64,000 nucleotides of DNA from Pomacea canaliculata (taxonomy: Eukaryota; Mollusca; Gastropoda; Architaenioglossa; Ampullariidae): assembly GCF_003073045.1 (NCBI RefSeq), contig NC_037596.1, positions 29,300,392-29,364,391 of the forward strand, given 5' to 3'. The position numbers and the translations under genes are program-made. Shown here piece after piece: positions 325-64,000 of the stretch; the stretch's first letter is position 1, and each line of letters starts with the position of its first letter. The notes beneath the pieces are model-generated. The model had not been told where the DNA came from. It saw only the letters and a program-made list of their open reading frames with translations, and searched no databases.

Positions 325-1221
325 GTGCCGTATTTTAAGATGAATAACTGCCGCTGTTGAGTATAGTCATATCCGACGATATGAATCGGGAAAGGAAGAA
401 ATTGCTTTTACTGCCTTCACCTTCATAAGCCGTTATTGCCATCATCACTATCTTCATACTCTTTATCTTCCTCCTCCTCCACGAATTCGTTCTTTTTTTT
501 TTCTTTCTCTTCCTCCTCCTTCTCCTCCTCGTCCTCCTCCTCGTCCTCCTCCTCGTCGTCGTCGTCGCCCTCCTCCTCTTCCTCCTCCTCATCATCATCA
601 TCCTAACTGGTATCGATCAGCAGGTCGACTTGTAAACTGAACGCAAGGTATGGGGAGAAGCTGGAGTAAAGTTGTGACCTTTGAACTATTCTTGAACACT
701 GAGTAATTCTCCCATCGTGCATACTTACCCCTCTTTGATGCTTGTTAACCAGGTTTTCTGCTGCGTTTAAGGGATTTAATTGAAACAGTTCAGTTATCAC
801 TTTATGTAAGATATGAATTTTAAATAAAACTTTTAAAGTAGTACAATAAATACAGATTTACAACTAAAAATATAAATATTGTCAGCTGATTTCCCTATTT
901 CTCACGCCATGCAAACTTTGATGGCCTCATCTTGAATAAGAGCTTGAAAACATTACATAGAATGTAAGTAATTAAAAAGATTCTTCTTTACTTTGTCAAG
1001 TACAGTACAGAATGAAGATAATGTGATTGATGTAACTGGTCACATGTAATCATAATCATATTTTGGTTTTGGCAGGTAATAGATGGCATCGAAAACGAGA
1101 TTGCGGCCTTATATGCAGCTTAACAGGCTGATACATCCGACACCTGACAGATGAAGGGAGCTGATGTTTTGACAACAAAGGCTATATAACAGCAAGACAC
1201 CTGACAAAGAATTCTAATAAA
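325..1221 (+). pseudogene. g0: 3' remnant of a type I secreted EF-hand gene
   Basis: Only the last intron and last exon of a family member are present. Bases from about 325 match intron 4 of g2 (from 16390). The final exon lies at 1076-1123 after a TTTTGGCAG acceptor and reads VIDGIENEIAALYAA then TAA, nearly the same as the g3 and g4 ends. A poly(A) signal AATAAA follows at 1216-1221. The promoter, signal-peptide exon and EF-hand exons are absent: the left part is replaced by upstream-type sequence and a dispersed repeat. The copy therefore cannot make the protein unless further exons lie outside the window, which the upstream-type junction argues against. Confidence 0.75.
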
Positions 1222-2720
1222 ATTCAAAATGTTTGAAATGAACGACAGTGGCTTTTCGTTATGTGTTCTGTAAGCAGATAATGAGGATAAAAACCCATAA
1301 AAGGAGAGGAAACAACAACAACATAACTGAGTTATTAATAATATCTCAGTTTTGACTTGACATGAAGAACTATTTTCACTCTTTTCCGTCGTGCCATGTA
1401 AAACTAAATTATTGATAAAATGTCTGGAAACAAAATTAAAATGGCAATTTGATTAGAATTTATGGTACATTAAATGTATTAAATTGTTTAACACTTTACA
1501 TTTTTTTCCTACATTCTACCTCGGGATTGATTTTAAAACAATTTCTTGTTCATCTAGTTTGCATCTCGCTTTAATATAAGAAAACAAATGAAATATATTT
1601 CACAATTTCTTATTTGGCTGTTTATTAAGTGTCACCTGGTAAGACAGTTTAGGTTGCCTTTTATTTTAAGGTTTGTAAATGTCTTTGTAAGCTGAAAAAT
1701 TTCTGACCAATAGATTTAATTATCTTCATATTTATTGGCTTGTTTAGATAGTACTTAGAGTTATGAAGCGATCGCGAGACTGAGTCAAGACAACATGAAT
1801 TGTGGTGTGTGCGGTCAGTAAACAGGAGGACGAAGTAGATACATTAATTAGTAATTTACAAATAAATAAAGAATGAATCGACTTGTCAGAAAGGAAATCT
1901 CTGCGCCATAAAAATTGTGAAAAAATACTGTGGACCCCAAATTGTATAAGTCTTCTGAATATTGTTTCTTATCACATAATCCCTTTTTTATATTCTGTGT
2001 GGTTCTTGTTTTATTCTCTTGTCTCATTAAAACTTTTGTTTTATGCAATAATGACTAAGGAGGCTCAACTCGTCTTTCAAAGCTGCTTGAGCGTTCGATA
2101 CACTTCATTGACCACAGTAAATGTTAGGAGCAAGTTTTTGAGATAAACAGTCTTGGCATATCTCTTTAGCCGACCTTGTTGTAAAATAGTGGGGTTTGAT
2201 TTTTAGTTTTGATACTTAGTTGTTTGTAGAAGGTTGATTTCTGACTAAGGAGTAAACGACTTTAGTCTAAAGACTTTCAAACGGTCATTTGGAAAAAAAT
2301 TTTAAAAAATAAAACTTTTATCTGATTGGTATACAGCATAATGAGAGACACGTACAAGACACAAACAGGAAGTAAAGTACATTTAAGCAAATAAAACCAA
2401 GATTTTCGTAAACATAATTACTATAATTTCTTAGAGCAAAAAGTTAATTCCAGCGTCAAAGAACAAAAGAAAAAAAGACTACTGATGAACTTTTGTAAAA
2501 TATTGAATAGCCGTCAGTTTTTTCTACATTCTTTAGCAGGTGTGTCTCTCACTGTTTGTGTTTGTTTGAGAGATAGAGATAGTGAGAGAAAGACATTGTG
2601 TGTTGTTATTTATTCTTTCCTTCATTTTCTATTTGTATTTTTCTTCTTCCAATGAGTATTTAAAACATAACATTTTTATCGTTTCTTTCTACGCTACTTG
2701 AGAACGGGGATGGAAGTCGT
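1222..2720 (+). other. 3' flanking block of the array unit, no gene
   Basis: Paralogous to the flanks after g2 (17280-18790), g3 (23305-25200), g6 (38915-40290) and to 56400-57530. Shared landmarks include the region around GTCGACCTTG(T/C)TGTA (seen here as CCGACCTTGTTGTA near 2170) and a GT-rich stretch before a CATCATC/GTCGTC tract. No open frame resembles a protein. Confidence 0.55.
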
Positions 2721-2744
2721 CATCATCATCATCATGATGGTCGT

Positions 2745-3298
2745 CGTCGTCATTAAACTACTGTAAGAGGCACATTATATTGGCTTCAAAACCCTCACAT
2801 GCACCAAAGATAATGACATACAATAATAAGCGCCATGTGTGCGTCTAAAGACAAAGTCCGGCAACCAGCCACCTGCCACGACACGGCTTATTGTCTCCCC
2901 TGCCTGACGCCTGCGCACACAAATACACTCAAATACTACATCTGCTGCAGATCAATGCAAGTGAAAGATTCGTAAATTCATGGAACTGTGGAAATAAATA
3001 ATAACACACAATTCTGCAAAATCCTTTGCCAACACGCGCAGATTATTTCCCAGTAAAACATTCACCAAGTTTTCTCATACATCATAGGTTAGTCTTGTGT
3101 TTATTGTTAGGCAAACACTCACCTGTCAAACTTCTAGATTACAAGGCAGCAGATGTTTTCTTTATCACAAGCTTAGTCTTAGTTTTTTGGTTTGTTCCTC
3201 AGGAATCAAAGTGTAAATTCGGCCCCTCTATCTACTGACCGTACACACATCACAACCCAAGTTTTCTTGGTTCTATTCAATTGCTTCTTCTTTAAACG
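2745..3298 (+). promoter_or_regulatory. Orphan promoter module P1 of the EF-hand family
   Basis: Contains the conserved upstream core GGCTTATTGTCTCCCCTGCC (near 2885), the CTGCAGATCAATGCAAGTGAAAGATT stretch in part, and the noncoding first-exon homolog ending at 3298. The TATA position reads TGTAAATT rather than TATATATT, and the usual splice donor (ACG then GTAAAT) reads ACGATGAAT, so the donor GT is lost. No family coding exon follows before g1's own promoter. I infer a dead or enhancer-only duplicate. Confidence 0.5.
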
Positions 3299-3587: not shown

Positions 3588-3655
<68 letters not shown>

Positions 3656-7422: not shown

Positions 7423-9143
7423 ATGAAGTTTGTCATCTTTCTTGGACTTCTGGGTGTGGTGCTCGGGTAAGTGACAATTTATTTCCAGGACTATTATTGC
7501 TAAATTTGAAGAAAAAATGTAACTAAAATGTTGCCAGCTATGACTAGGATTAGTTTGAACATCATCAGTCAAGGAATCTACAGCTTAGCCTTTCATCTGA
7601 TTTGTTTACGCCATATACTTGCAAGCAACTGGAAACTGCACTTTTTAAAGTTAAATTATTTACACACACATAAAAGTAACATGTCATCATATTCAAGATA
7701 CACTTTATTAATCAGAGCAGACAATATTTTTTCAGCAATGATGCCAACTACGTCTCCAAGCTGTTCCACGCTACCGACATCAACAACGATAATGTCATTT
7801 TGCTTCATGAAATTATGGAAGCTTTTAACTACATGGATGTGGACGGTAATCATCATTATCATTATTGTCGTCATCTTCGCCATCGTCACCATCAAGACCC
7901 TTACCCCACCCAGCACCAATGTCGGTGTCATTCTTATAAAGGGTTAAAATTTCACAATGAGTTAAACATGTTTTGAATGTCTAATGATATGAACACTATT
8001 TTCTTCTAGTAATTTGGTGAATATATCCAAGAAGCTTTCCCTAGTTATAGAAATAAAATATTTGCTTCCCACTAGATATAAATCACTATTTCAGACGATT
8101 ACCAGCTGACTCTTGAAGAGTTTGGCGCTGACTTAATTCCCGGGTCGCCTCCTCTTGATGTCGAGAGCGCTTTCAAATTCTTCGACACAAAGGACCTGGA
8201 GGAGAATGGCTTGTTGGATAAATCAGCTGTTCTGTTCTATTTCAATGGCCTGGACAGTAACAGTGAGTTATATTTATATATATCTTAGGCTAAGTTTTCG
8301 CGACGCAAAGTGTAAACTTATTGAATGATAATGATAAACGCTTATTTTAAAGCTACAAACACATCTCAATTTTTATTTTAATGACATCTTTGTTCTCATC
8401 GATCTGTCAATTGCTTAGCTGCCAAAAGAAAAACTATCACGGAAAATCTCAATTTTATACAACATTTTGAAAGTGTCTAATAATATAATAATAAAATTTA
8501 TTTTTATCGTGCAATACTTCACAAGGTTAATGTCATTCTCGACGTGCATAAAAAAGAAACTGAACACACGAAACTTATTTGATCGAAGAAAAGACTGTAA
8601 GTCAACAGATAATCTGAAACCACAAAAAGGAAATAAAATGTTATTGTCCTAGTCACAAAATGCAGTCAAGGACAATCACTAAAATCCCATCAGTCAGACT
8701 CCAAACTCAAAATTAACTTAAGGAATCGTCAAAATCAGTAAGAATCTGGAGAGACATGCCTCTCCAAAAAAATGTGTAAATATCTAAAATGTTTTATATA
8801 TATATATACTATTATGTAAAATAAATGATATAGAATATTATATATACTATAAGGCTGTATATTTATATTTTCAGAGGACGGCCGACTCACACTTGCGGAA
8901 TACATGGAGAATTATTTTCTGGTAATAGAATCAGTATGGATAGACAGGCAGACATAAAAACAACAGATAGAGATACAGACAGATTGACTGACTGACAGAC
9001 AAACAGATAAATATGAGATGATTGGAAGAGAAAGTGTAAGAGAGAAAGTTCAGAATGCATGCAGAGGATACAATAGTAAGGAATGTTAATATTTGATTAC
9101 ATTTCGGTGTTGACAGCTCTTCGATGACAATGGCCGTAAATAA
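7423..9143 (+). CDS. g1: secreted EF-hand protein, type II, 131 aa
   Basis: Five coding exons: 7423-7466, 7736-7845, 8095-8262, 8875-8921 and 9117-9143, all with GT-AG introns and consistent phases (2, 1, 1, 0), summing to 396 nt. The signal peptide is MKFVIFLGLLGVVLG. EF1 is DINNDNVILLHE, EF2 DVDDDYQLTLEE (split by intron 2), EF3 a degenerate DLEENGLLDKSA without Glu at position 12, and EF4 DSNKDGRLTLAE (split by intron 3). The tail is LFDDNGRK. The protein should be exported and bind calcium mainly through EF1, EF2 and EF4; partners are unknown. It is the only intact type II copy with canonical splice sites. The start is chosen because it opens the signal peptide after a short 5' UTR in the same exon. 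Confidence 0.85.
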
Positions 9144-15052: not shown

Positions 15053-17179
<2,127 letters not shown>

Positions 17180-20902: not shown

Positions 20903-22470
20903 ATGAAGATTGTTATTCTTTCCTGTCTTCTAGCTGCGGTACTTGGGTAAGCGCTCATTTCATTAAGCTTTTAAAGGATTCTAAACTTAAGAAAAAAATT
21001 AGTTTTAAGCGAATCTTGAAGATTTTTAAAGAAACTCGGTAAATATACTCAGACTTTTCTCTCTTTCACAGCAATTAGTTGACAGCAATAAAGAAGTGTA
21101 ATGAATAAAAGTACTCAAAAACATGGACAGACACCTAGCACCCCCCTGCACACACAGGCACCGATAAGCACATCCTGTTAACACCCGTAACAAATAAATG
21201 CATGACTAACATAAGACGACGACTAAACCGTTTGATGTATTCTTTCAGGATGAACTACGACGAAGCTAAAGCAGGTTTTGACTCTACCGACCTAGACGCT
21301 GATGGGGTTGTACGGCCAGAGGAGATGTCGACTTTCATCGCAAAGACTGACACAAACAGTAATCGCCATTATCATCATCATCGTCGTCGTCGATGACAGC
21401 ATAGTCGTTAATCCCTTTCTAATCTTTCGCGTTTAATTATCTGAATTTTTTAACCAATTTTACTTACTATCTCCGTTAAGGCTACCGACAAGTGCTCTGT
21501 AGAACAGAAAACTGTGTACATAATTTACATTTTAAGCATCTTATATTTGGAATAATAAAAAAAAAGCTGATGGTCACTAGCTAAGTCCGTCTGAGAATGA
21601 GTATTAATGCGTATTAAACTGAAGAGATGTCTGAATTGTTTTCACAAATCTCTTTCGCAGACGACGGAAGCATATCCATTGAAGAGTATACAGCTACTCA
21701 GCTACCCGGGACACCCGAGCTTGTAATTCAGGGTCATTTCAACTACTACGACAAACTAGATGGCGCTGATGACGGTGTGATCTCTCTGTCGATTGCTCCT
21801 GTGCTTTTTGACATCCTCGACCCTGACAGTAAGTAAAGACCTTTGACACCAGGACATTAAAAGGCAGGAACAAAAAGTCTTTCCACCTCATACCTACAGA
21901 ATAAAGTACACAGGACAATTGAAACTACGATCTTTTTATAGTTGAACAATAATATTTGCGTTTTTGGATTTCATGTAGTGTTTTCAAATATGCACTTAGC
22001 TAAGCCGTTTTAAAATATGTCGAGTACTTAATTTTAAAATCGTTTTATTTTGTGAGTTCCACTTTTTAAAGAACTGAATTGAATTTTCAGATGACGGTGA
22101 AATCACTCTTGAAGATTGGTTTGTGACTCTTCCACAGGTAATATTTAACAGACAGAAAGAAAGAAGGAAAAACACACAGACACACAGACAGAAACACATG
22201 CCGAATTTTAAGACAAACTACTACTGCTGCTGTTAAGTAGTCATATCCGAATATACGAATCGGAGAAGGAAGAGGTTGCATTTACTACCCTCGTCGTCAT
22301 AAAACGTAATTGTCATCATCACCATCATCCTCATGCTTTTTACCTTCCTCCTTCTCCAAGCATTCGTGCACCTTCTGCTCTCTGTCATACTCTTTCTCCT
22401 ACTACTACTACTCCTACTACTACTCCTCCTCTTCCTCCTCCTCCTCCTCCTCCGCCACTTCCTCCACCTT

Positions 22471-22505
<35 letters not shown>

Positions 22506-23207
22506 TAACTGGTACCGATCGGAACAAGAAGCTCCACCCCTACAAATCATCGTAAGGGATGGGGCACTCGATAACACAGCAGGAGTAAAGGCGCGAACTT
22601 TGAACTTTTTTTGAACACCTTTGAGTAATTCTCCCATCGTGCATACTAACCCCTCCTTGATGCTTTTCCACCAGGATTTTTTTCTGTTTTTAAGGAATTC
22701 AATTGAAATTTGTTGGCTATCAATTGATGTGTGATATGAATTTAAAATAAAACTTTTAAAAGATGAAAATAAAGATTTACAAGTAAAAGGAGTGTATATA
22801 TATATAAATCAATATTGTCAGATCATTTCTCCATGTCATACCCCAATATATCTTTAATCATTCGAATCATACGATGTGATTGCCTGATTTTTAAAAGAGC
22901 AACTTGTTTTAAAGGTACTTAAAAAATATCATACATTTTACACGATTCCTCTAATTGCACGTGTATCGCAATGGGAATGGGCTCGTTGATGGGTAGCCAT
23001 GCAAACTTTGAAGACAGCATCGTGAGTCTGAGCATGAAAATATTACATGTAATGTAAGTAGTTAAAAAGATTCCTCTCAACTTTGTCAAGTACAGTACAG
23101 AATATAAATAATGTGATTGGTGTAGCTGGTCACAAGTAATCATATTTTGGTTTTGGCAGGTAAACGATGGCATCGAAAACGAGATTGTGGCCTTATATGC
23201 AGCTTAA
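20903..23207 (+). CDS. g3: secreted EF-hand protein, type I, 138 aa
   Basis: Coding exons 20903-20946, 21249-21358, 21661-21828, 22091-22137 and 23160-23207 sum to 417 nt with consistent phases. The signal peptide is MKIVILSCLLAAVLG. EF1 is DLDADGVVRPEE, EF2 DTNNDGSISIEE, EF3 a degenerate DGADDGVISLSI, and EF4 [12 protein letters not shown]. The C-terminus is VNDGIENEIVALYAA. All splice sites are canonical and no break is seen. A poly(A) signal lies at 23299-23304. It is flanked by g2 and g4 in the same orientation, consistent with tandem duplication. The predicted product is an exported acidic calcium binder; its biological role is unknown. Confidence 0.88.
22396..22506 (+). repeat. (CTA/CTC)n-(ATC)n microsatellite in g3 intron 4
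   Basis: Trinucleotide runs at the same place as in g2 intron 4. They create Ser-, Met- and Ile-rich false frames on both strands. Confidence 0.9.
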
Positions 23208-26548: not shown

Positions 26549-28456
<1,908 letters not shown>

Positions 28457-33735: not shown

Positions 33736-33980
33736 ATGAAGGTTCTTATTCTTTCCTGTCTTCTAGCTGTGGCACTGGGGTAAGCGTCCATTTCCTGAAA
33801 TATTTTAGAGGATTCTAAACTTAAGAAAAAAATTAGTTATGAGCGACTCTTGAAGATTTTTAAAGAAACTCAGTAAATATCCCCAGGCGCTTCCCTATTT
33901 CGCAGCATGTAGATGACAGAATTAAAGAAGTGTAATGAATAAAAGTACTTAAAAACTTGTACAGATACCTAGCACCCCTC

Positions 33981-34076
<96 letters not shown>

Positions 34077-35378
34077 ACAAACACACACACACTCAGGCAC
34101 CAAAAGCCAGTTAACATCCGTAACAAATGGATGCATGACTCACATTACATAAAACCGTCTGATTTCTTCTTTTAGGATAGACTACGACGGAGTTAAAAAA
34201 AGTTTTGATGCTACCGACATCAACCATGATGGTATTATACGCCCAGATGAGATACTGACTCTCTTCACAAAGACTGACGCAAACAGTAATCGTCATTATT
34301 ATCATCTTCGTCGTCGGCGTCAGCTATGACGGCATAACACTTTCGAATCTTCCGCTTTTATTTATCTGATGTTTTTACCAGTTTTACTCATTTTCTCCGT
34401 TAAGGCTACCGACAAGCTCTCGAAAGCACAGAAACCTGTGTACATAATTTACATTTTACATATCTTATATTTAGAATAAAAATAAAAAATAAAAATGTAG
34501 ATGCTCATTAAGCCGGTCTGCGAATGTTTATTAAACTGAAGAGATGTTTGAATTGTTTTCACAAATTTCTTTCTCAGACGACGGAAACATAACCGCTGAA
34601 GAGTTTACAGCTCTTTATCAACCCGGGACACCCGAGGTAAACCAGGGTTATTTCAACTACTACGACAAACTAGATGGCGCTGCTGACGGTGTGATCTCTA
34701 TGGCAGTTGCTCAACTGCTTTTTGACGTCTTCGACGCTGGCAGTAAGCAAACAACTTTGACACCAGCTCATACCTGCACTGGATCGTACAAAGGACTCTT
34801 GACAAGTCCTTTTTTTATCGTTGAACAATAACATTTGTGGTTTTAAATTTCATTTATTGTTTTTAAATATGTATGTAGCTAAGGCGGTTAAAAAAGGTTG
34901 AGTGCTTGATTTTAAACTCGTTTATGTTGTGAGTTCCACTTTTTAAACAACTGAATTGAATTTTCAGATGATGGTGAAATCACACTTGAAGATTGGTTAG
35001 CGGCTCTTACACAGGTAATATCACACAGACAGACAGACAGACACACACACAAAGACACACAGACACACAGACACACAGACAGACATATGCACGTGCTGAA
35101 TTTTAAGATAAACTACTACTGCTGCTGTTGAGTAGTCATATCCGAATATATCCTCGTTGATGGGTAGCCAAACAAACTTTGAATGCACCATCGTGAATGA
35201 GAGCAAGAAAACATTACATGTAATGTAAGTAGTTAAAAAGATTCCTCTCAACTTTGTCAGGTACAGTATGGAATGAGAACAATGTGATTTATGCAACTGG
35301 TCACACCTAATCCTGTTTTCGTCTTGGCAGCTAAAAGATGACATCCAAAACGAGATTTTGGCTTCATATGCTGATTAA
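33736..35378 (+). CDS. g5: secreted EF-hand protein, type I, 137 aa
   Basis: Coding exons 33736-33779, 34176-34285, 34578-34742, 34968-35014 and 35331-35378 sum to 414 nt. Exon 3 is one codon shorter than in g2-g4 (GTPEVNQG against GTPEIVIQG). The signal peptide is [17 protein letters not shown]1 is [14 protein letters not shown]2 [14 protein letters not shown]3 a degenerate [12 protein letters not shown], and EF4 [12 protein letters not shown] with Gly at position 3. The C-terminus [15 protein letters not shown] differs from the other subgroup. Nearly a twin of g8, sharing its second-class promoter. Intact; poly(A) signal at 35471-35476. An AC run of about 90 bases lies in intron 1 of the coding part. 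Confidence 0.87.
33983..34075 (+). repeat. (AC)n microsatellite in g5
   Basis: About 90 bases of AC repeats between the signal-peptide and EF1 exons. Confidence 0.95.
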
Positions 35379-35847: not shown

Positions 35848-35917
35848 GGTGGTTATGACAGTGAAGATGTGAATGGTAATTAATATTATCCTCGTCATCA
35901 TCCATTATCTGGTATAT
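35848..35917 (+). pseudogene. Scrap of a type II EF-hand exon 2 and intron start
   Basis: GGTTATGACAGTGAAGATG, then AATG before GTAAT and the first 40 bases of intron 2, match g7 at 41902-41970. Neither end continues into other exons, so it is a relic joined to LINE sequence. Confidence 0.6.
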
Positions 35918-36084: not shown

Positions 36085-36398
36085 CAGGAGGCTTCCGACA
36101 AGGGTGTGTAGAAAGTCCTCCTATAATCTCTCTTATCATGACTAGAATATCCGATATGCTGTCTACCAAAGGTAGACGCGGTATCCAGCTTCGCCCTGGT
36201 CTAGTTGAGCTGTTCATTCTTATGTTTGCAGACGATCTGATGTTTCTATCAAGAATGTCGGCTTCACTCCAAAACCAAATAAACTGCCTCACTAACTCAT
36301 ACCAGAAGCTTAAATTAGAAATAAAATTTAGAAAAACCAAGGTAGTTGTCCTTGGAATAAGAGATTTCTATGAAGAAGGGAAAATTACAGTATACAAA
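36085..36398 (+). mobile_element. LINE reverse transcriptase fragment
   Basis: A continuous frame reads GGFRQGCVESPPIISLIMTR, then LVELFILMFADDLMFLSRM with the FADD catalytic motif, then LQNQINCLTNSYQKLKLEIK and RKTKVVVLG. These are motifs of non-LTR reverse transcriptase palm and thumb. It stops at 36398, where the g6 promoter module (GCTAAGCGACATG) begins. Shorter copies of the same join lie upstream of g9 and g10. Confidence 0.75.
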
Positions 36399-36888
36399 GC
36401 TAAGCGACATGTGTGTGCGTCTAAAGATCAAGTTCGGCAACTCGACACTTGAGACTACGCGGCTTGTTGTCTCCCCTGCCTGACGCCTACACACACAGAC
36501 AGCGACAGACACACACTGTGACTAGACCTGCTGCAGATCAATTCAAGTAACAGATTCGTGAATTCACTGAAGTGTGGAAATAAATAATAAGACACATTGC
36601 TGGAAGATCGTTTGCCAGCACGTGCAGATTATTTCCCAGAGAAACATTCACCACGTGTTCTCATACATCATCGGATAATCTTGTGTTTATTACAGCACAC
36701 AGTCACCTGTCACACCTACTTACAGATTACAAGGCAGCAGATTTTTTCTATATCACAAGCTTCGTCTTGATTTATTGGTTTGATCCTCAGGAATCAAAGT
36801 ATATATATTTGGTCCCGCTATCTACTGACCATACACACATCACAACCCAAGTTCTCTTGGTTCCATCGAATTACTTCTTCTTCAAACG
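36399..36888 (+). promoter_or_regulatory. g6 promoter and noncoding first exon
   Basis: The upstream core is near 36460 (CGGCTTGTTGTCTCCCCTGC). The TATA box TATATATATT is at 36800-36809. The first exon ends CTTCAAACG at 36888 before GTAAATAC. A full module comparable to g9 and g10. Confidence 0.65.
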
Positions 36889-37144: not shown

Positions 37145-38816
37145 ATGAAGATTGTCATTCTTTCCTGTCTTCTAGCTGCAGTTCTTGGGTAAGAGCTAAT
37201 ATTTGTAAGACTTTTAGAGAATTGTAAACTAGTCTTGAGTGAACCTTGAAGATTTTTAAATTCAGTAAATATTCTCAGACGCTTCCTTTTTTTCACAGCA
37301 TATAGTTCAAAGCAATAAATAAGTTTAATGAATAAGAATAATTAAAATCTCGGACAGATACATAGCAATCCTCCTCTCTCCCATACACACACACATACAC
37401 ACACAGGCACCAATCTCACATTCTTAACAAATGGATGCATGACTAACATAAGACAACTACTAAACCGTTTGATTTATTCTTTCAGGGTTGGCTACGACGA
37501 AGTTCAAAGATCTTTCGCTGCTGTCGACCTCGACGGTGATGGAGTTATACAGTGAGATAAACTGATGACCGTCTTCGAAAAAAGAGACGCAGACAGTAAT
37601 CGTCATTATTATCATCATCATTATCGTCGTCGTCTTCGTCAGCGATGACAGCATTACCTTTAATTCCTTTTCTAATCTTCCCCGTTTAATTATCTGATTT
37701 TTTTTTACACATTTTACTTATTATTTCTGTTAAGGCTACCGACAAGCGCTCTATATAGCACAGAAAACTGTGTACATAATTTACATTTTAAACATCTTAT
37801 ATTTAGAATAATAAAAAGGTTGATGCTAATTACGCCGGTCAGCGGATGTATATTAAACTAAAGAGATGTCTGAATTTTTTTCACTTATTCGCAGAGGACA
37901 AAACCATAACCATTGAAGAGTATACAGCTACTCATGTACCCGGGACACCCGAGCTTGTAATTCAGGGTAATTTCAACTACTACGACAAACAAGATGGCGC
38001 TGCTGACGGCGTGATCTCTCTGTCCATTGTTCCTGTGCTGTTTGACATCTTCGACGCTGACGGTGAGTGTGACTGCTTTGACACCAGGACATTAAAGGGT
38101 AGAAACAAAAGGTATTTCTAGCTCATACCTACAGAGGATCGTACAAAAGACACTTGAAAATGTTATCTTTTGTCGTTGAGGAATACCTTTTGTGATTTTG
38201 AATTTAATTTAGTGTTTTCAAATATGTTGCTTGCTTAAATTTAAAATCGTCTTATGTTGTGAGCTTCACTTTTCAAACAACTGAACTGAATTTTCAGATG
38301 ACGGGGAAATCACACTTGAAGATTGTCAGTCGAGTCTTCCACAGGTAATATCTGATAGATAGATTGATCATCATCATCATCATCATCATCCTCACGCTCT
38401 TTACCTTCCTCTTCAACAAATTCCTGCTCCTTCTCTTTCGCCTCCTACTTCTCCTCTACCACATCATCGTCATCGTCGTCGTCGTCATAATCATCGTCAT
38501 CCTCCGTAACTGAGAGCGAGAAGTCCGGGCCGTACAAATCATCGTATAGGATGAGGAGATAACACAGCAGGATAAAAGGTGTGACCTTCCAACTAATGCT
38601 TATCACCTTTAAGTAGTTGTCCCATCGCGCATGCTTGAGAGAATGAAAACATTACATAGAAAATAAGTAATTAAAAAGACTCATCTCAACTTTGTCAGGT
38701 ACAGTACGCAATGAGATAAATGTGATTGATGCCACTTGTCACACCTAATCATATTTTTGTCTTGTCAGATATTAAATAACATCCAAAACGAGATTGTGGC
38801 CTTATATGCAGCTTAA
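37145..38816 (+). pseudogene. g6: type I EF-hand gene with an in-frame stop in EF1 exon
   Basis: The exon set is complete: 37145-37188, 37486-37595, 37895-38062, 38298-38344 and 38769-38816, all with GT-AG borders and correct phases. In the EF1 exon the codon after GVIQ is TGA (37553-37555), where g9 and g10 have CGA. This is a CpG-type transition that would truncate the product just before EF1's end. Elsewhere the frame is open: EF2 is DADKDKTITIEE, EF3 [14 protein letters not shown]4 [12 protein letters not shown], followed by CQSSLPQ and ILNNIQNEIVALYAA. g10 on the minus strand is its near twin with the arginine codon. Either a young pseudogene, a null allele or a sequence error. Confidence 0.8.
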
Positions 38817-41434: not shown

Positions 41435-42944
41435 ATGAAGCTCATCATCTTTCTTGGTCTTCTGGCCGTTGTGCTTGGATAAGTGTCGATGTCATTGGTT
41501 TAACAAAGAAAACAATCTGTAATTTTTATTACACTAGTTTAAGGGTGGCGGGTGTAGACTAGTACATCTGAGTAATTCTAACGGTAAAGTGTCGTCAGAA
41601 CTAATTAGTTTCTTTTAATAACCGATAAAATGATAAAATGACATATATCAATGATTTAAGATTCTTATTAAATTCCATTTTCTAAACATATAACTTCCAG
41701 CAGCACATGTACCGTACAGCTTGCATATTAGTGCACACACACACACAATAGCACCAGTGTCGGTGTCATGTGATCGTCTGATCAAAGAACTGCAAAGTGT
41801 TTCGTTGTTTTCAGAGATAAAACCAACAGACTGCCCCAGCTGTTCTATCTCATCGACAGTGACAACGATGGGGTTATTAACATCAATGAAATGAAGGCTG
41901 GTTATGACAGTGAAGATGCGAATGGTAATTTATATTATCATCGTCATCATCCATTATCTGATATATTATACTGTAAAATACATACACCCTATGGAATTAG
42001 CCATCGCAAAGAATACTTAAAATACTACTCTCACAATTTCAAATTATAAATTGTTTTCAGTTGACACCCGGAGTGTACTCTAACCAAAATTATATTATCC
42101 ACTTTGATGAATGTCAATAAGAATCCGTGAAAATGTCTACTAAAAGAAACACGGGGAAGTGGCTGGATAAAGTGTCTGTGCACAATGACAGTGGGATTTA
42201 GGTGATACCTATTTATTAAAAAAAAGTATTTGCACTCGATTTGTAAACAAATTACTCTGGCAGGCGATGGAGTGCTGACCTTTGACGAATTCGCTGCTGG
42301 TTCGCATCCCGGGTCACCCCCTCTTGATCTGCAGAGCGCTTTCGACTTCTTCGATGAACTGGACCAGAAGAAAGACGGCAAAGTCGATATGTCTGCTGTC
42401 GCCATCCTCTTCAATGGCCTCGACGAAGACTGTGAGTTTGATATCTTTTAAGTAAGGTCCTTAGGAAGAATAATCTAAAAGTATTAAATAATTATTTTAA
42501 AAAATCATTTTAAAAAAGAAACTCTTCAAATGATTGATTTCAATGCCTGTCAGTGTTTTCATCAACATGTCAACTGTTTCTTTGTTTAGAAGTAAATAAT
42601 AAGCTGATCGTAATTATGTGTTTCAAGCAGCACTAATTATCTAAACTGTATTTATATTTTCAGACGACGGTGTACTCACACTTGCGGAGTTCTCTCGCAA
42701 TTACTCTCTGGTAATATAATCAGCTCATCAACAAACAGACAGGCAAACAAACAAACAAACAAACAAACAGGCAGATACATAAATATAAGATGGGTAACGA
42801 CTGTGAGATAAAAAAGAAAGAATCCTTAGGTTATAAGTTGGATAACTTGTGTATTCAGTGTAGGTAGTGAAAATGTTTATTTATACTTGATTTTATTTCG
42901 GTTTTCAGATGTTCGGCGAAAACACTACAGACGAGTCGACCTAG
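41435..42944 (+). CDS. g7: secreted EF-hand protein, type II, 134 aa, altered first donor
   Basis: Coding exons 41435-41478, 41815-41924, 42264-42431, 42664-42710 and 42909-42944 sum to 405 nt. The signal peptide is MKLIIFLGLLAVVLG. EF1 is DSDNDGVININE, EF2 DANGDGVLTFDE, EF3 a degenerate DQKKDGKVDMSA, and EF4 DEDYDGVLTLAE. The C-terminus is MFGENTTDEST. The frame is undamaged, but the donor after the signal-peptide exon reads ATAAGTG where g11 and g1 have GTAAGTG. Unless this is a sequence error or a tolerated donor, splicing of the signal-peptide exon would fail, so its status is uncertain. Introns 2 and 3 split EF2 and EF4 as in type I. Confidence 0.75.
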
Positions 42945-46767: not shown

Positions 46768-48872
46768 ATGAAGGTCCTTATTCTTTCCTGTCTTCTAGCT
46801 GTGGCACTGGGGTAAGCGTCCATTTTCTTAAGGCTTTTAGAGGATTGTAAACTTAAGAAAAAAATTAGTTATGAGCGACTCTTGAAGATTTTTAATGAAA
46901 CTCAGTAAATATGCCCAGGTGATTCCCTATTTCGCAGCAAGTAGTTGACAGCAATAAAGAAGTGTATTGAAAATAAGGACTTAAAATCTTGTACAGGTAC
47001 CTAGCAACCCTCCTACACAAAGGAATGAATGACTCATATAACTTAAAACCGTTTAATTTATTCATTTAGGACATTCTACGACGAATGTAAAAGAAGTTTT
47101 GAAGCTACCGACATCAACCATGATGGTATTATACGCCCAGATGAGATGTCGACTGTCTTCACAAAGACTGACGCAAACAGTAATCGTCATTATTATCATC
47201 TTCGTCGTCGGCGTCAACCCTTTCTAATCTTCCGCTTTTATTTATCTGATAGTTTTACCAGGGTTTTTTTTTCCAATTTTTTATTTTCTCCAACAATAAT
47301 GTATCTTATAATATGAAACACAAAACATTACACAAAAGTTGCTTTGTATCAGAAATTCACAGGCAAAAATTTACCTATAAGTGTTGTAATTAAAAGAGAC
47401 AAAAACAAACAAAAACAAAAACAAAAAAAAGGTACGGCAAAAATTTGTTTAGGACTGAACACTGTGCATCTATACAGCATTCAAAAAGAAGGGTGTGCAT
47501 GCACACACAAAAGAGCATAGACAGAGACTGAGAAACATGTAAAAGGAGTAAACTGTACTAAACTTTTCAGCAGCCCACAGAGATGAGCACTCCCGTTTGA
47601 AGTATCAACTGACCAGTAGGAGAGATTAAATGTTTCCCCAAGAAAGCATAATGCCAATACTGTCCAATAACATGTGGCAACCACATGATTACAAGTGGCA
47701 AAATTTGGGCAGTACTCATAGGTTTAATTCACAATTTGACCATTTCCCAAACTCAGAAAATATCCACACAAAAAATATTCACACAAGAAAAACTCTGGAA
47801 ATGACATATTAAATGACCCATCTTAGTTAACACCAAAAAAAAAAAACTTAATAACCCTTTCTAATCTTCCGCTTTTATTTATCTGATATTTTTACCAGTT
47901 TTACTCATTTACTCCGTTAAGGCTACCGACAAGCTCTCGAAAGCACAGAAACCTGTGTACATAATTTACATTTTACACATCTTATATTTAGAATAAAAAT
48001 ATAAAAAAATGTTGATGCTCATTAAGCCGGTCTGCGAATGTTTATTAAACTGAAGAGATGTTTGAATTGTTTTCACAAATCTCTTTCTCAGACGACGGAA
48101 ACATAACCGCTGAAGAGTTAACAGTTATTCATCAACCCGGGACACCCGAGGTAATCCAGGCTTATTTCAACTACTACGACAAACTAGATGGCGCTGCTGA
48201 CGGTGTGATCTCTATGGCAATTGCTCAACTGCTTTTTGACATCCTCGACGCTGGCAGTAAGCAAACAACTTTGACACCAGCTCATACCTGCACTGGATCG
48301 TACAAAGGACTCTTGACAAGTCCTTTTTATGGTTGAACAATAACATTTGTGGTTTTAAATTTCATTTATTGTTTCTAAATATGTATGTAGCTAAGGCGGT
48401 TAAAATATGTTGAGTGCTTAATTTTAAACTCGTTTATGTTGTGAGTTCCACTTTTTAAACAACTGAATTGAATTTTCAGATGATGGTGAAATCACACTTG
48501 AAGATTGGTTTGCGGCTCTTATACAGGTAATATCACACAGACAGACAGACAGACACACAGACACACAGACACACAGACAGATACACATGCCGAATTTTAA
48601 GATAAACTACTACTGCTGCTGTTGAGTAGTCATATCCGAATATATCCTCGTTGATGGGTAGCCAAGCAAACTTTGAATGCACCATTGTGAATGAGAGCAA
48701 GAAAACATTACATGTAATGTAAGTAGTTAAAAAGATTCCTCTCAACTTTGTCAGGTACAGTATGGAATGAGAACAATATGATTTATGCCACTGGTCACAC
48801 CTAATCCTCTTTTGGTCTTGGCAGCTAAAAGATGACATCCAAAACGAGATGATGGCTTCATATGCTGATTAA
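46768..48872 (+). CDS. g8: secreted EF-hand protein, type I, 137 aa
   Basis: Coding exons 46768-46811, 47070-47179, 48092-48256, 48480-48526 and 48825-48872 sum to 414 nt. The signal peptide is [17 protein letters not shown]1 is [14 protein letters not shown]2 [14 protein letters not shown]3 a degenerate [12 protein letters not shown], and EF4 [12 protein letters not shown]. The C-terminus is [15 protein letters not shown]. It shares with g5 the one-codon-shorter exon 3 and the same promoter class. It has a Cys in the region before EF1 (YDECKRSF), unlike its relatives. Intron 2 carries a 591-bp insertion. The family poly(A) signal reads AATACA here, so 3' processing may be weaker or use another site. 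Confidence 0.85.
47262..47852 (-). mobile_element. Insertion in g8 intron 2 flanked by 46-bp direct repeats
   Basis: The host intron text AACCCTTTCTAATCTTCCGC...TTTTACCAG occurs at 47216-47261 and again at 47853-47898 with one mismatch. g5's intron has it once. Read on the minus strand the insert ends in AATAAAAAATTGG and a run of 9-10 A, suggesting a retroposed sequence. No protein motif is recognised. The duplication is unusually long for a target-site duplication. Confidence 0.6.
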
Positions 48873-50478: not shown

Positions 50479-51214
50479 ATGAAGGTTGTCATTCTTTCCT
50501 GTCTTCTAGCTGCAGTTCTTGGGTAAGAGCTCATATTTTAAAGACTTTTATAGAATTCTAAACTAGTTATGAGTGACGCTTTAAGACTTTTAAATTCAGT
50601 AAATATTCTCAGACGCTTCTCTTTTTCACAGTATATAGTTCAACGCAATTAATAAGAAATAAGAGTAGTTAAAATCTCTTACAGATGCATAGCAACCGTC
50701 CTCTCTCTCACACACACACACATATAAACACACAGGCACCAAAAGCACATCCAGTTAACATCCTTAACAAATGGATGCATGACTAACATAAGACGACGAC
50801 TAAACCGTTTGATTTATTCTTTCAGGGTGGGCTACGACGAAGTTCAAAGATCTTTCGCTGCTGTCGACCTCGACGGTGATGGGGATATACAGCGAGATGA
50901 ACTGATGACTGTCTTCGAAAAAAAGACACAAACTGTAATCGTCATTATTATCATCATCATTATCGTCGTCGTCGTCTTCGTCAGCGATGACAGCATTACC
51001 TTTAATACCTTTCTAATCTTCCGCGTTTAATTATCTGAATTTTTTTACAAATTTTACTTATTATTTCCGTTAAGGCTACCGAAAAGCGCTCTATAGCACA
51101 GAAATCTGTGTACATAATTTACATTTTAAACATCTTATATTTAGAATAAGAATAATTAAATGGTTGATGCTCATTACGCCGGTCTGCGGATGTAAATTAA
51201 ACTGAAGAGATGTC
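50479..51214 (+). pseudogene. g9: type I EF-hand gene cut off before exon 3
   Basis: The signal-peptide exon 50479-50522 (MKVVILSCLLAAVLG) and EF1 exon 50826-50934 (EF1 DLDGDGDIQRDE) are followed by intron 2 up to about 51214, where inverted 3'-flank sequence of the neighbouring g10 begins. The EF2-EF4 exons are absent. The EF1 exon is 109 nt instead of 110: one A is missing in the A-rich stretch near 50917-50925 compared with g10, which shifts the frame, and the last base before the donor is T rather than A. The truncation alone makes it non-functional; the single-base loss could also be a homopolymer error. Confidence 0.8.
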
Positions 51215-52080: not shown

Positions 52081-52404
52081 TTAAGCTGCATATAAGGCCA
52101 CAATCTCGTTTTGGATGTCATTTAATATCTGCCAAGACAAAGATATGATTAGGCGTGACAAGTTGCATCAATCACATTCTTCCCATTGCGTACTGTACCT
52201 GACAAAGTTGAGAAGAATCTTTTTAATTACTTATTTTCTATGTAATGTTTTCATTCTCTCAAGCATGCACGATGGGACAACTACTTAAAGGGGATAAGGA
52301 TTGGTTGGAAGGTCACACCTTTCATCCTGCTGTGTTATCTCCTCATCCTTTGCGATTATTTTTACGGCCCGACGTTCTTGCTCCGAGTTAAAGATGATGA
52401 TGAT

Positions 52405-52459
<55 letters not shown>

Positions 52460-52584
52460 TGATGATGATGATGATGATGATGAGGAGGAGGAGGAGGAGG
52501 AGGAGGAGGAGGAGGATGTGGTAGAGGAGAAGTAGGAGGAGAAAGAGAAGGAGCAGGAATTCGTGGAAGAGGAAGGTAAAGAGC

Positions 52585-52633
<49 letters not shown>

Positions 52634-54004
52634 CAATAACGGCTTTTGACGGTGAAGACAGTAAACACAAGCTCCTCCGTCTCTGATTCATAATTATAGT
52701 CAGATATGGCTATATTCAACAGTGGCAGTAGTTTATCTCAAAATACGGCATGTCTATCTATCTATCAGATATTACCTGTGGAAGACTCGACTGACAATCT
52801 TCAAGTGTGATTTCCCCGTCATCTGAAAATTCAGTTCAGTTGTTTGAAATGTGAAGCTCACAACATAAAACGATTTTAAATTTAAGCAGCAACATATTTT
52901 AAAACATAATAGCTAAGTACATATTTGAAAACACTAAATTAATTTTAAAATCAGAAATGGTATTCTTCACGACAAAAGATAACATTTTCAAGTGTCCTTT
53001 GTACAATCCTCTGTAGGTATGAGCTAGAAATACCTTTTGTTTCTACCCTTTAATGTCCTAGTGTCAAAGGAGTCACACTCACCGTCAGCGTCGAAGATGT
53101 CAAACAGCACAGGAACAATGGACAGAGAGATCACGCCGTCAGCAGCGCCATCTTGTTTGTCGTAGTAGTTGAAATTACCCTGAATTACAAGCTCGGGTGT
53201 CCCGGGTAGCTGAGTAGCTGTATACTCTTCAATGGTTATGGTTTTGTCCTCTGCGAATAAGTGAAAAAAATTCAGACATCTCTTCAGTTTAATTTACATC
53301 CGCAAACCGCCTTAATGAGCATCAATCTTTTTAGTATTCTTATTCTAAATATAAGATGTTTAAAATGTAAATTATGTACACAGTTTTCTGTGCTAGAGAG
53401 CGCTTGTCAGTAGCCTTAACGGAAATAATAAGTAAAATTTGTAAAAAAATAAAATAAAAGAGATAATTAAACGCGGAAGATTAGAAAGGTATTAAAGGTA
53501 ATGCTGTCATCGCTGACAAAGACGACGATAGTGATGATAATAATGACGATTACTGTTTGTGTCTTTTCTTTCGAAGACGGTCATCAGTTCATCTCGCTGT
53601 ATAACCCCATCACCGTCGAGGTCGACAGCGGCGAAAGATCTTTGAACTTCGTCGTAGCCCACCCTGAAAGAATAAATCAAATGGTTTAGTAGTTGTGTTA
53701 TGTAAGTTATGTATTCATTTGTTAAGGATGTTAACTGGATGTGCTTTTGGTGCCTGTGTTTATGTGTGTGTGTGAGAGAGAGAGGAGGGTTGCTATGCAT
53801 CTGTAAGAGATTTTAATTACTCTTATTCCTTATTTATTGCTTTGAACTATATGCTGTAAAAAAGAGAAGCGTCTGAGAATATTTACTGAATTTAAAAATC
53901 TTCGAGCGTCGCTCATAACTAGTTTAGAATTCTATAACTCTTAAAAATATGAGCTCTTACCCAAGAACTGCAGCTAGAAGACAGGAAAGAATGACAACCT
54001 TCAT
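52081..54004 (-). CDS. g10: secreted EF-hand protein, type I, 138 aa, minus strand
   Basis: Minus-strand coding exons in order 54004-53961, 53663-53554, 53250-53083, 52822-52776 and 52128-52081 sum to 417 nt, with canonical GT-AG introns. The signal peptide is MKVVILSCLLAAVLG. EF1 is DLDGDGVIQRDE, EF2 DTNKDKTITIEE with Lys at position 6, EF3 a degenerate [12 protein letters not shown], and EF4 [12 protein letters not shown]. The tail is CQSSLPQ then ILNDIQNEIVALYAA. It is the intact, inverted counterpart of g6 and shares its unusual EF2 and Cys-containing tail. It is the only complete copy in this orientation. Confidence 0.87.
52393..52633 (+). repeat. (ATG)n/(GAG)n compound microsatellites in g10 intron 4
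   Basis: GAT runs at 52393-52481 and 52586-52633 with GAG runs between. They are the minus-strand equivalents of the CTC/ATC tracts in other introns 4 and create Ser/His/Ile homopolymer frames. Confidence 0.92.
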
Positions 54005-57530: not shown

Positions 57531-57539
57531 TGGACATCG

Positions 57540-59173: not shown

Positions 59174-61178
59174 ATGAAGCTTATCATCTTTCTTGGTCTT
59201 CTGGCTGTTGTGCTTGGGTAAGTGTCGATGTCTTTGGTTTAACAAAGAAAACAATCTGTAATTTTTTACAACTAAGTTTAGGGGGCGGTGTAGATAGTAC
59301 ATCTGAGTAATTTAACGGTAAAGTGGTCGTCAGAACTAATTAGTTTCTTTAATAACCGATAAAATGATAATACAATGATTTGAGATTCTTATTAAATTCC
59401 ATTTTCTCAACATATAACTTCTAGCAGCACATAACTGTACATAACTTGCATATAAGCGCACACACACACACACTAGCACCAATGTCGGAGTCATGTGATC
59501 GTCTGATCAAAGAACTGCAAAATGTTTTTTTTGTTGTTTTCAGACGATAAAACCAACAGACTACCCCGAGCTTTTCTACCTCATCGACGCAGTGACAACA
59601 TGGGTTATTAACATCAATGAAATGAAGCATTGGTTATGACAGTGAAGATGTGTAATGGTAATAATATTATCATTGTCATCATCCATTATCTGCTATATTT
59701 ATACTGTAATATACATACACCTATGGAATTAGCCCGATCGCAAAGAATACTAAAATACTACTCTCACAATTTCAAATTATAAATTGTTTTCAGTTGACGC
59801 CCGGAGTGTACTCTAACCAAAATTATATTATCCACTTTGATGAATGTCAATAATAATCCGTGAAAATGTCTACTAAAAGAAACACGGGGAAGTTGCTGGA
59901 TAAAGTGTCTGTGCACCATGACAGTGGGATTTAGGTGACGTGAGTTCGGATCTCGGTTCACGCAAGCGGATGCTTATAAAGTCATTACACTAAATTTAAA
60001 GTTCCATCCAGTTTTGATGCAAAACCTTTGTTAAACAGCAGTGCATACGCATTTTAAATCCTTTTTTTTTTTTATTTACTTCTTTGTAGTGTTCACCTGA
60101 CACTAAATGTATTATTATTCAAGTACGATTTTAATTACACTTTTAATCTCTGTTTAATGGGATCTTTTGTCACACTAAAACCAAAGCTAGTATATAGCGA
60201 AATTATATCTGTGATTGGTGTTATTTAAATGCATGTAAGTATGATTATGTAAATGCTTGTAATATTCATAACAAATACTTTTCTTTCAAACTATCTTCAT
60301 AACAAAATGTTGTTGGTATGCTTGTGATACCATTTGTCGGTGAGAATACATTGGAGGTTTAAGACATTGTGTAAAATACACTTTAAAGGTCTAGTGAAGT
60401 GTTTTTAATAATTGGGTAAATTTCGGTGGCAGATACCTATTTATTAAAAAAAAAAAGCATTTGCACTCGATTTGTAAACAAATTACTCTGGCAGGCGATG
60501 GAGTGCTGACCTTTGACGAATTCCGACTGCTGGTTCGCATCCCGGGTCACCCCCTCTTATTGGAAGTGCTTTTTCAACTTCTTCGATGAACTGGACCAGA
60601 AGAAAGACGGCAAAGTCGAATAAATCTGCTGTCATCCTCCTTTCAATGGCTCGACGAAGACTGGAGTTTGATCTTAAGTAACGTCCTTGGGAGGAATAAT
60701 CTAAATGTATTAAAAATTATTATTAAATCATTTAAAAAATAATACTCTTCAAATTGATTTCAATGCTCGTCAGTGTTTTCATCAACTCAAACGTTTTCTG
60801 GTTTAGAAGTAAATAAACAAGCTGATCGTAATTGTGTGTTTCAAGCAGCACTAATTATCTAAACTGTATTTATTTTCAGACGACGGTGTACTCACTCTTG
60901 CGGAGTGCATATCGCAATACTCTCTGGTAATATAATCAGCTCATCAACAAAACAGACAGGCAAACAACAAACAAACAAACAAGCAGATACATAATATTTT
61001 AAGATGGGTAACGACTGTGAGATAAAAAAAAAAAAAAAATGAAATCCTGTAGGTTATAAGTTGGAAATGTTAAGTTATGCAGTGTAGGTAGGTGAAAATG
61101 TTTTATTCATACTTGATTTTGTTTTCGGTTTTCCAGATGTTCGGCGAAAACACTAACAGACGAGTCGACCTAGTCTGA
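59174..61178 (+). pseudogene. g11: type II EF-hand gene with many small indels
   Basis: The signal-peptide exon 59174-59217 is perfect (MKLIIFLGLLAVVLG, donor GTAAGTG). The EF1 exon (59544-59657) and EF2-EF4 exon (60495 to about 60662) have several single-base insertions and deletions against g7. They break the frame, and the exon-3 donor GTGAGT is reduced to GAGT. The EF4 exon 60880-60926 is full length. The last exon starts at 61137 and has an extra base before its stop. The same rate of small indels is seen in its introns and flanks, so either it is a decayed copy or this part of the assembly is unpolished. If the latter, the locus could encode a functional twin of g7. Confidence 0.7.
59885..60433 (+). 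mobile_element. Possible tRNA-derived SINE in g11 intron 2
   Basis: AGTTGCTGGATAAAGTG (box A-like) and, about 45 bases on, GTGAGTTCGGATCTCGG (box B-like) suggest a tRNA-related head. The 495 bases at 59939-60433 are absent from g7, which keeps only the head region (42150-42214). Terminal duplications and a tail repeat were not identified, so the call is tentative. Confidence 0.35.
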
Positions 61179-62830: not shown

Positions 62831-63192
62831 TTGTGTGATCCTTAAAATGTTCCAGTACAGGTATGTTGTTTGTTTTTAACTTGTGTGAACATCAATGGGT
62901 CAGTTGTAAAAAATTATGGAAGAATTTTTACAAAAATAATTTATAAATATCTTGAGATTCACGACAACGTTAAGTGGGAAAAATTTTTATATTATTAAAT
63001 TTTATTAAATAAAAGAAAATTATATAAATAAAAGAATTTTTAACTCAGAATTAGATGGGTGTGATTTTTAACTCACTTTATTTTAGAGTTTCTCTTGCAG
63101 TCATCGAGGGCGATGATCTATTTGATGGTGCTGGTACCTTCTTGCCTGCGCGTCACTATGAATAGCTAGCTGTCCAAGTATGCTCTGCCATA
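62831..63192. other. Unresolved sequence before the gap
   Basis: A possible acceptor TCTCTTGCAG lies near 63091-63100, followed by a short frame MIYLMVLVPSCLRVTMNS at 63113-63169 that looks like a hydrophobic leader but does not resemble either family signal peptide. Not strong enough for a gene call. Confidence 0.2.
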
Positions 63193-63292
63193 NNNNNNNN
63201 NNNNNNNNNNNNNNNNNNNNNNNNNNNNNNNNNNNNNNNNNNNNNNNNNNNNNNNNNNNNNNNNNNNNNNNNNNNNNNNNNNNNNNNNNNNN
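63193..63292. other. Assembly gap, 100 N
   Basis: Exactly 100 N, the usual placeholder for a gap of unknown size. The signal-peptide exon of g12 may be hidden here. Confidence 0.95.
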
Positions 63293-63437
63293 AATATGCT
63301 TTTCAACAATTGTTGCCACTTAATTAGTTTTGGTGTAAATTAGAATTAATTAAAATAAATAATCACGCAGTTCTTTTAATTTTGCATTAGCCGTTTGTAC
63401 TCACTTTGAATCCCAGTTCACTAAAAAAAATATCCAT

Positions 63438-64000
63438 ATGTGTAAGTCTATGGATTCTCTCATAGAGTTCAGACGTGACACGGAGACGAATAACAATTTA
63501 CCCAGTCATCTGAAAGAGGAACACAATTGCTCCAGTTATTGCAACTCTTTTTACGAGATATCTGCACATGATGACACCACCGTGAAAGAAATTTGGCCTG
63601 GCTGGAACATCCGGGTCGCCCCTCTTTAATCAAGAAGCTTTTTCGATTCTACGACAAACGGGACACAGGCAGAAATACATTCTTGATGGACTCTGTTTAA
63701 CGATTTTCAAAGGCCTCGGACACTAACAGTAAGCTGATAGCTTTCAAGGTCAAGGCACGTATGGACACACCCAGTGTTGATAAATTTAAGATTGAGTAAC
63801 ACTATCTCTTTTTCGCCTAGAAAGACGCTGTAAAAATGACGTCTATCTTTATTTATTCAATTTAATTTAAAATAATTCAGTAAACCTTTCAGAGTTTTGT
63901 CGTTTAAAACTAAAATAACGTAAATGTCATTTCTAAGGTTTTTACGTACGTCTCTAGTTTTTTTATTATGTTAGACTGCTTCCTTACTTTTGCAGATGGA
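63438..64000 (+). pseudogene. g12: divergent, partial EF-hand family copy running off the window
   Basis: A frame from about 63438 to 63629 contains DTETNNNLPSHL in the place of an EF1 loop and HDDTTVKEIW in the place of the second half of EF2, followed by a Pro-Gly region like the family's PGSPP/PGTPE. In another frame comes FRFYDKRDTGRNTF, like EF3. The exon ends with GGACACTAACA at 63728 before GTAAGC. A further acceptor TTTTGCAG then ATGGA lies at the window end, where the EF4 exon is expected. EF1 and EF2 appear in one exon with no intron between them, unlike all other copies. Frameshifts are present, and I cannot separate decay from assembly error. The gene continues beyond the window. 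Confidence 0.45.

What the first reader, a model, noticed from the sequence alone, without database searches (positions are those of the whole stretch)
1076..64000. Tandem, partly inverted array of at least 13 copies of a small secreted EF-hand gene
Seen: the same five coding exons (44, 110, 168/165, 47 and 27-48 nt) with the same phases recur from g0 to g12, in two sequence types (ILSCLLA and IFLGLL signal peptides), with intact, damaged and truncated members. Known: EF-hand loops bind calcium; proteins with a signal peptide and no membrane segment are exported. Inferred: a birth-and-death family of extracellular calcium binders, perhaps for shell, egg-fluid or mucus use. I do not recognise it as a named family.
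Basis: partly seen in the sequence, partly recalled or inferred. Interest (0 to 1): 0.75.

Follow-up and report, generated by a model that had tools for sequence, protein, structure and literature searches.

The report
Apple-snail secreted EF-hand gene array
The window shows part of a very large chromosome cluster of small, probably exported calcium-binding proteins in what looks like an apple snail; their calcium sites stay fixed while other parts of many copies change unusually fast, which suggests the copies are being diversified and not simply multiplied.

Summary
The window (C7:29,300,392-29,364,391 of a 440-Mb genome matching Pomacea canaliculata in size) holds 14 loci of one five-exon gene with coding exons of 44, 110, 168/165, 47 and 27-48 nt. 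Seven are intact (six type I, one type II; one inverted). Seven are damaged or fragments.

The window is a small part of the family. I list 40 loci or fragments in 264 kb, 19 of them intact. Genome searches give 62 exon-3-like places at E<=1e-3 (95 at E<=1), mostly on C7.

Each product is a very acidic protein of about 13.5 kDa with a signal-peptide-like start and four EF-hands. Loops 1, 2 and 4 are canonical or nearly so; loop 3 lacks its glutamate in all 19 intact copies. In type I copies the signal exon is conserved, whereas non-ligand codons of exon 2 diverge more than adjacent introns. Site models support diversifying selection (2dlnL 50.8; 20 null simulations reach at most 5.2).

Best reading: a birth-and-death family of exported calcium binders, plausibly reproductive. 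Papers of 2026 report secreted calcium-binding proteins in this snail's egg fluid and egg capsule.

The parts
310..1123 (+). 5'-truncated relic: part of intron 4 plus exon 5 (1076-1123)
   Evidence: blastn to intron 4/exon 5 of seven intact copies, 81-86% over 824-832 columns; exon-5 model
7423..9143 (+). intact type II gene (IFLGLL); exons 7423-7466, 7736-7845, 8095-8262, 8875-8921, 9117-9143
15053..17179 (+). intact type I gene; exons 15053-15096, 15361-15470, 15748-15915, 16186-16232, 17132-17179
20903..23207 (+). intact type I gene; exons 20903-20946, 21249-21358, 21661-21828, 22091-22137, 23160-23207
26549..28456 (+). intact type I gene; exons 26549-26592, 26904-27013, 27326-27493, 27754-27800, 28409-28456
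33736..35378 (+). intact type I gene with 165-nt exon 3; exons 33736-33779, 34176-34285, 34578-34742, 34968-35014, 35331-35378
35848..35904 (+). fragment of a type II exon 2
   Evidence: tblastn 79% over 19 aa, E 5.5e-7
37145..38816 (+). type I gene broken by an in-frame TGA in exon 2 (37486-37595)
41435..42944 (+). type II-like gene with open exons but an AT donor after exon 1 (GG|ATAAGT); probably damaged
46768..48872 (+). intact type I gene with 165-nt exon 3; exons 46768-46811, 47070-47179, 48092-48256, 48480-48526, 48825-48872
50479..50925 (+). truncated type I gene: exon 1 and an exon 2 whose frame is lost near its end; exons 3-5 not found
52081..54004 (-). intact type I gene in inverted orientation; exons 54004-53961, 53663-53554, 53250-53083, 52822-52776, 52128-52081
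   Evidence: inverted repeats I1-I3
59174..60926 (+). type II-like pseudogene: open exon 1 and exon 4, broken exons 2 and 3
63593..63697 (+). remnant of an exon 3
   Evidence: tblastn E 4.8e-4 over 63593-63664

Best explanation
The window is a slice of a very large birth-and-death family of small exported EF-hand proteins in an apple snail. Shown: a signal-peptide-like first exon precedes a very acidic protein of about 120 residues with four EF-hands. Loops 1 and 2 carry full calcium-ligand sets and loop 4 nearly so; loop 3 lacks the position-12 glutamate. Phase-1 introns cut loops 2 and 4 at the same place. Also shown, for type I copies: the calcium ligands of exon 2 are held fixed while other codons diversify (omega above 1 in exon 2 and in exons 4-5), and the signal exon is constrained. 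Inferred: the proteins are secreted by gland epithelium, bind about three calcium ions each outside the cell, and present a variable surface to partners, most likely in reproductive-tract secretions (albumen or capsule gland, so egg fluid or capsule). There they would carry or buffer calcium or hold calcium-dependent contacts with matrix. The intron position suggests that an ancestral EF pair was duplicated to give the four-hand protein.
For: Exon anatomy and intact models. EF-hand at gathering score in five of five proteins, one of them the W41435 model with the AT donor. In 19 intact models, ligand positions 1, 3, 5 and 12 are full for EF1 and EF2; EF4 was readable in 18, with G at position 3 in 2 of them and D or E at 12 in all 18; EF3 position 12 is non-acidic in 19 of 19. 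In 20 models the mature part has 17-25 more acidic than basic residues and no 19-residue stretch of mean hydropathy above 1.7. Printed C-termini (AA, TA, AD, RK) show no ER-retention signal. Selection in 15 type I copies: M1a-M2a 2dlnL 50.8, per-exon and subset fits, 20 null simulations at most 5.2, exon-2 ligand and loop-core codons pN 0.042 against 0.305 in the other codons and 0.179-0.210 in adjacent introns. Genome scale. The egg capsule of this species holds seven calcium-binding matrix proteins, with EF-hand among the symbols of the figure legend, and egg-fluid CaBP has TPM above 10,000 in Pomacea (tissue not named in that passage).
Against: There is no expression or protein evidence for any locus here. 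The egg CaBP sequences could not be compared. In 5 of the 6 closest listed pairs with alignable introns exon-2 pN is below intron divergence (for example 1/83 against 7/357; the exception is 3/84 against 8/356), so diversification sits mainly on deeper branches. Gene conversion between copies can mimic positive selection and was not tested within exons. Whole-CDS dN (median 0.172) is below 7 of 8 corrected intron-flank medians (0.170-0.363); the excess shown is that of exon 2 against its own flanks. Exon 3 shows no significant signal (p 0.11). Type II copies do not show it: median omega 0.58 in 3 usable pairs.
Confidence: 0.5

Rival explanations
1. The array encodes the known egg calcium-binding proteins (CaBP) and works simply as calcium carrier or mineral stabiliser for the calcified egg capsule; extra copies serve gene dosage.
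For: PMC13394694 reports seven calcium-binding matrix proteins in the capsule, with an EF-hand symbol in the Figure 4 legend. PMC13336756 reports a CaBP tree across Ampullariidae, detection in egg fluid and TPM above 10,000 in Pomacea. Acidic calcium binders fit.
Against: Dosage alone predicts conserved copies, but the mature part of type I copies diversifies. No sequence or locus of CaBP was available in the texts read.
Confidence: 0.3
2. Diversified defence or recognition proteins (immune, anti-predator or sexual), with calcium needed for fold or ligand contact and the variable surface facing a changing partner.
For: Constrained signal with diversifying mature part, large copy number and many broken copies.
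Against: No known partner or recognition domain; most of the closest pairs show no exon-2 excess over introns; no cysteine scaffold (0-1 Cys in 20 models).
Confidence: 0.25
3. Mostly decaying duplicates: relaxed constraint after tandem duplication, with the selection signal produced by gene conversion.
For: Seven of 14 window loci are broken or fragments; median pairwise omega is about 1 (1.05 over 100 usable pairs); conversion was not tested within exons.
Against: 19 of 40 listed loci keep all five exons open, and EF1/EF2 ligands are kept in 19 of 19; exon 2 and exons 4-5 remain significant on their own trees.
Confidence: 0.2

Closest known systems
Apple-snail egg CaBP / egg-capsule calcium-binding proteins (XP_025102048.1 = Pca_154_3.36 and others; PMC13394694, PMC13336756, passages read)
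   Same: Same organism as judged from genome size; signal peptide (capsule proteins without one were set aside by those authors); EF-hand in the figure legend; calcium-binding
   Different: Sequence, locus and exon structure not available in the text read; identity to this array untested
Calmodulin / troponin C type four-EF-hand proteins
   Same: Four EF-hands in two pairs; PDB profile hits are generic members of this superfamily
   Different: Signal-peptide-like exon, loop 3 without glutamate, fast non-ligand evolution; best single-sequence PDB hit is 2m7n 'Calcium-binding protein' at 7.6e-7 (Entamoeba origin recalled)
Conotoxin-type gene families (recalled, as an evolutionary pattern only)
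   Same: Constrained signal exon, diversifying mature part, tandem copies
   Different: No cysteine scaffold, no propeptide exon, no venom gland evidence; EF-hand fold
Abalone acrosomal fertilisation proteins (PMC9022041; listing with title and start of abstract seen)
   Same: Duplicated, diversifying secreted mollusc proteins
   Different: Unrelated fold (recalled); no sperm or egg-coat evidence here

Membership tests
EF-hand superfamily | Helix-loop-helix with 12-residue loop, ligands at 1, 3, 5, 12 | tested here: met
   Pfam gathering score passed in 5 of 5 full proteins (two joined exon pieces stayed below it); EF1 and EF2 ligands in 19 of 19
Calmodulin family | No signal peptide; four functional loops; slow evolution (recalled definition) | tested here: not met
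   Signal-like exon 1, EF3 lacks E12 in 19 of 19, diversifying sites in type I copies
SPARC calcium-binding domain | PF10591 at gathering score | tested here: not met
   15.2-17.8 bits against cut-off 22 in the four of five proteins that listed it
CREC / reticulocalbin (recalled) | ER-retention C-terminus such as HDEL | tested here: not met
   C-termini AA, TA, AD, RK in the 20 printed full models
Apple-snail egg CaBP | Sequence identity to XP_025102048.1 or capsule peptides | not testable with these tools
   Neither sequence nor locus in the texts read; supplement look-ups not available
Apple-snail egg CaBP | High expression in egg-forming glands | not testable with these tools
   No RNA data held

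The most novel reading that the evidence does not exclude
A genome-wide family of up to about a hundred exported EF-hand loci in which calcium ligands are frozen and other residues are diversified by positive selection, used as a repertoire of variable extracellular recognition or defence proteins and not merely as calcium carriers.
Probability: 0.25. Interest if true: 0.75.

Novelty: new variant of a known kind. Interest (0 to 1): 0.5.

Why it matters
EF-hand proteins are usually slow-evolving, intracellular and few (recalled). An exported, multiplied and diversifying set would show that the fold can serve as a scaffold for rapid change around fixed calcium sites. It would also offer a defined gene set for asking how calcified aerial eggs arose in apple snails, because each copy could be matched to tissue RNA and egg proteomics of the kind already published.

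Tried and rejected
Considered and dropped: EF3 as a long inserted loop; once glycine is aligned to position 6 the loop has the canonical length but lacks E12. W15053 as lacking exon 4; a diverged exon 4 is present at 16186-16232 (sequence, model). W1076 as a whole gene g0; it is a relic. Promoter search: no common TATA-type motif stood out among 19 upstream stretches; a splice-acceptor-like motif before ATG suggests an intron in the 5' leader but no leader exon was located. Literature: ten paper searches showed no title or abstract start describing this array; passages of PMC11359391 on EF-hand proteins and a term search of PMC11423352 (no occurrence) led nowhere. NCBIfam, one protein, gave nothing above cut-off. 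ARAGORN found no tRNA.

Results against the reading: 5 of 6 closest listed pairs with alignable introns show exon-2 pN below introns; exon 3 is not significant; whole-CDS dN is below 7 of 8 intron-flank medians; type II copies show median omega 0.58 in 3 usable pairs. One of the 24 diversifying sites is position 12 of EF3, the vacated ligand place. One pair (29334127/29347159) has intron flanks that do not align sensibly (0.425) and is no use as a neutral reference, though it is in the pooled figures.
Full report
What is there. The window lies at C7:29,300,392-29,364,391 of a 440,159,624-base genome in 24 contigs. The size agrees with the published Pomacea canaliculata assembly (440,071,717 bases in Table 1 and 14 large scaffolds; passages of PMC6129957). 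I count 14 loci in the window, 7 intact. At the thresholds the minus strand of the 264-kb scan gave only the five exons of the one inverted copy and one short exon-5-like hit, so the pattern is not chance.

Beyond the window. I fetched 199,609 bases around the window (391 bases next to it were not had) and scanned 264 kb. Reading the exon table by eye together with the damaged window loci I list 40 loci or fragments, not counting three isolated exon-1-like stretches; 20 chain to full five-exon models, of which one has a misplaced exon 2, leaving 19 (15 type I, 4 type II). The window order 7k-15k-21k-26k-34k-37k-41k recurs at 29.411-29.458 Mb with one extra copy (29416512) after the first, and four corresponding pairs have dS 0.011-0.054: a block duplication. 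W52081-54004 lies in an inverted duplication of the 36-39 kb stretch. Genome searches with three family proteins, merged by hand for exon-3-type hits, give 62 places at E<=1e-3 from the first query (72 matches less 10 exon-2-only rows) and 95 at E<=1 from all three: C7 24.4 Mb (4), 26.4-26.7 (7), 28.3-28.6 (21), 28.7-29.2 (18), 29.2-29.5 (34), C6 5, C11 4, C8 2. The weaker ones may include other EF-hand genes. Seven loci outside the scanned stretch were read with the exon models: exon 3 is 168 nt in 7 of 7, exon 2 is best read as 110 nt in 3 and 95-98 nt in 4, and exon 4 as 47 nt in 4 of 7 (none above threshold in 3).

The protein. Five of five full proteins pass Pfam EF-hand gathering scores (two joined exon pieces did not); no more specific family was found in Pfam, NCBIfam (one protein) or by profile against the PDB. 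In 19 intact models EF1 and EF2 have D1, D/N3, D5 and E12 without exception; EF4 was readable in 18, with D/E at 12 in all and G at position 3 in 2; EF3 keeps D1 and G6 but position 12 is I, V, A or L in 19 of 19. Among 14 further exon-3 rows read by eye, one (29390414) has glutamate there. In the 20 models the mature part is 115-125 residues, 13.3-13.7 kDa, with 17-25 more acidic than basic residues and 0-1 cysteine. The phase-1 introns cut EF2 and EF4 at the same place in the loop, after the first base of codon 4, which suggests an ancestral duplication of an EF pair (inference). The signal peptide is judged from sequence; no predictor was run.

Evolution. For 15 intact type I copies, pN/pS is 0.27 in the signal exon, 1.34 and 1.81 in the EF1 and EF2 segments, 1.10 in the linker, 0.48 in EF3, 0.88 in EF4 and 2.28 in the tail; the median omega over 100 usable pairs of 105 is 1.05, with 54 above 1. 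Eight intron flanks differ by median p 0.152-0.288. In exon 2, ligand and loop-core codons have pN 0.042, other codons 0.305, all codons 0.242, synonymous sites 0.186 and adjacent introns 0.179 and 0.210; exon-2 pN exceeds the introns in 82 of 105 pairs (pairs are not independent). Site models in my own code, whose M0 likelihood equals IQ-TREE's (-2144.76), give M1a-M2a 2dlnL 50.8 with omega 3.85 at 30% of sites. On their own trees exon 2 gives 28.9 (p 5e-7), exons 4-5 20.8 (p 3e-5), exon 3 4.3 (p 0.11) and exon 1 0.0; a 10-copy subset (69.9) and the 6 window copies (49.7) remain significant. Twenty simulations under M1a reach at most 5.2. Of 24 sites with posterior above 0.8 none is at loop position 1, 3, 5 or 12 of EF1, EF2 or EF4; one (site 96) is the vacated position 12 of EF3. 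Against this: 5 of the 6 closest listed pairs with alignable introns have exon-2 pN below introns, while two more distant listed pairs have it above; whole-CDS dN is below 7 of 8 corrected intron medians; type II pairs show no such pattern (median omega 0.58, 3 usable pairs); gene conversion within exons was not tested.

Function. No expression data are held. PMC13394694 (abstract, passages and two sections of the results read) reports seven calcium-binding proteins in the egg-capsule matrix of P. canaliculata, with EF-hand among the symbols of Figure 4, and names XP_025102048.1 (Pca_154_3.36). PMC13336756 (passages read) reports calcium-binding proteins in egg fluid of Pila and Pomacea, with TPM above 10,000 in Pomacea. 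Sun et al. 2019 is not held and is known only through those papers and recall. I therefore favour glandular, probably reproductive, exported calcium binders, and keep the diversified-recognition reading as the bold alternative. Neither is shown.

Novelty. EF-hand proteins and apple-snail egg CaBPs are known. What I did not find in ten searches of the held library is a description of this array, its fixed five-exon form with a third hand lacking its glutamate, or its diversifying evolution. Most results were seen only as listings, much of the literature is not held, and the gene-family tables of PMC13336756 could not be opened, so this is weak evidence of absence.

Noticed in passing
window 29748 to about 32416, minus strand: Non-autonomous LTR-type element: direct repeats extending about 366 nt with at most 3 mismatches, a gag-like ORF (Retrotrans_gag 21.6 bits, below the 24.1 cut-off) and an ORF with a strong cold-shock domain (PF00313, 8.8e-20) that runs into 48-nt tandem repeats. 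A cold-shock domain beside gag seems unusual (recalled); observed only.
   Followed up: partly
window 35928-36452, plus strand: ORF with a reverse-transcriptase domain match (PF00078, 3.1e-11) between family copies; a retroelement may have taken part in the duplications.
   Followed up: no
window 41435-41478: Exon 1 of an otherwise open type II-like gene is followed by AT in place of GT (GG|ATAAGT), while W59174 has GT; could be damage or a rare splice form.
   Followed up: partly
C7:29245984, 29274732, 29421867: Three isolated exon-1-like stretches (MNIVILFxLLATVL) without further exons chained to them.
   Followed up: no
C7:29369825 (L017), 29378104 (L018), 29393926 (L019): A third signal type, MLVIVFLGLLAVAL, with its own exon-3 sequences.
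   Followed up: partly
upstream of exon 1 in type I copies: Conserved acceptor-like TTGACAG or TTTACAG about 25 nt before ATG, suggesting a spliced 5' leader.
   Followed up: partly
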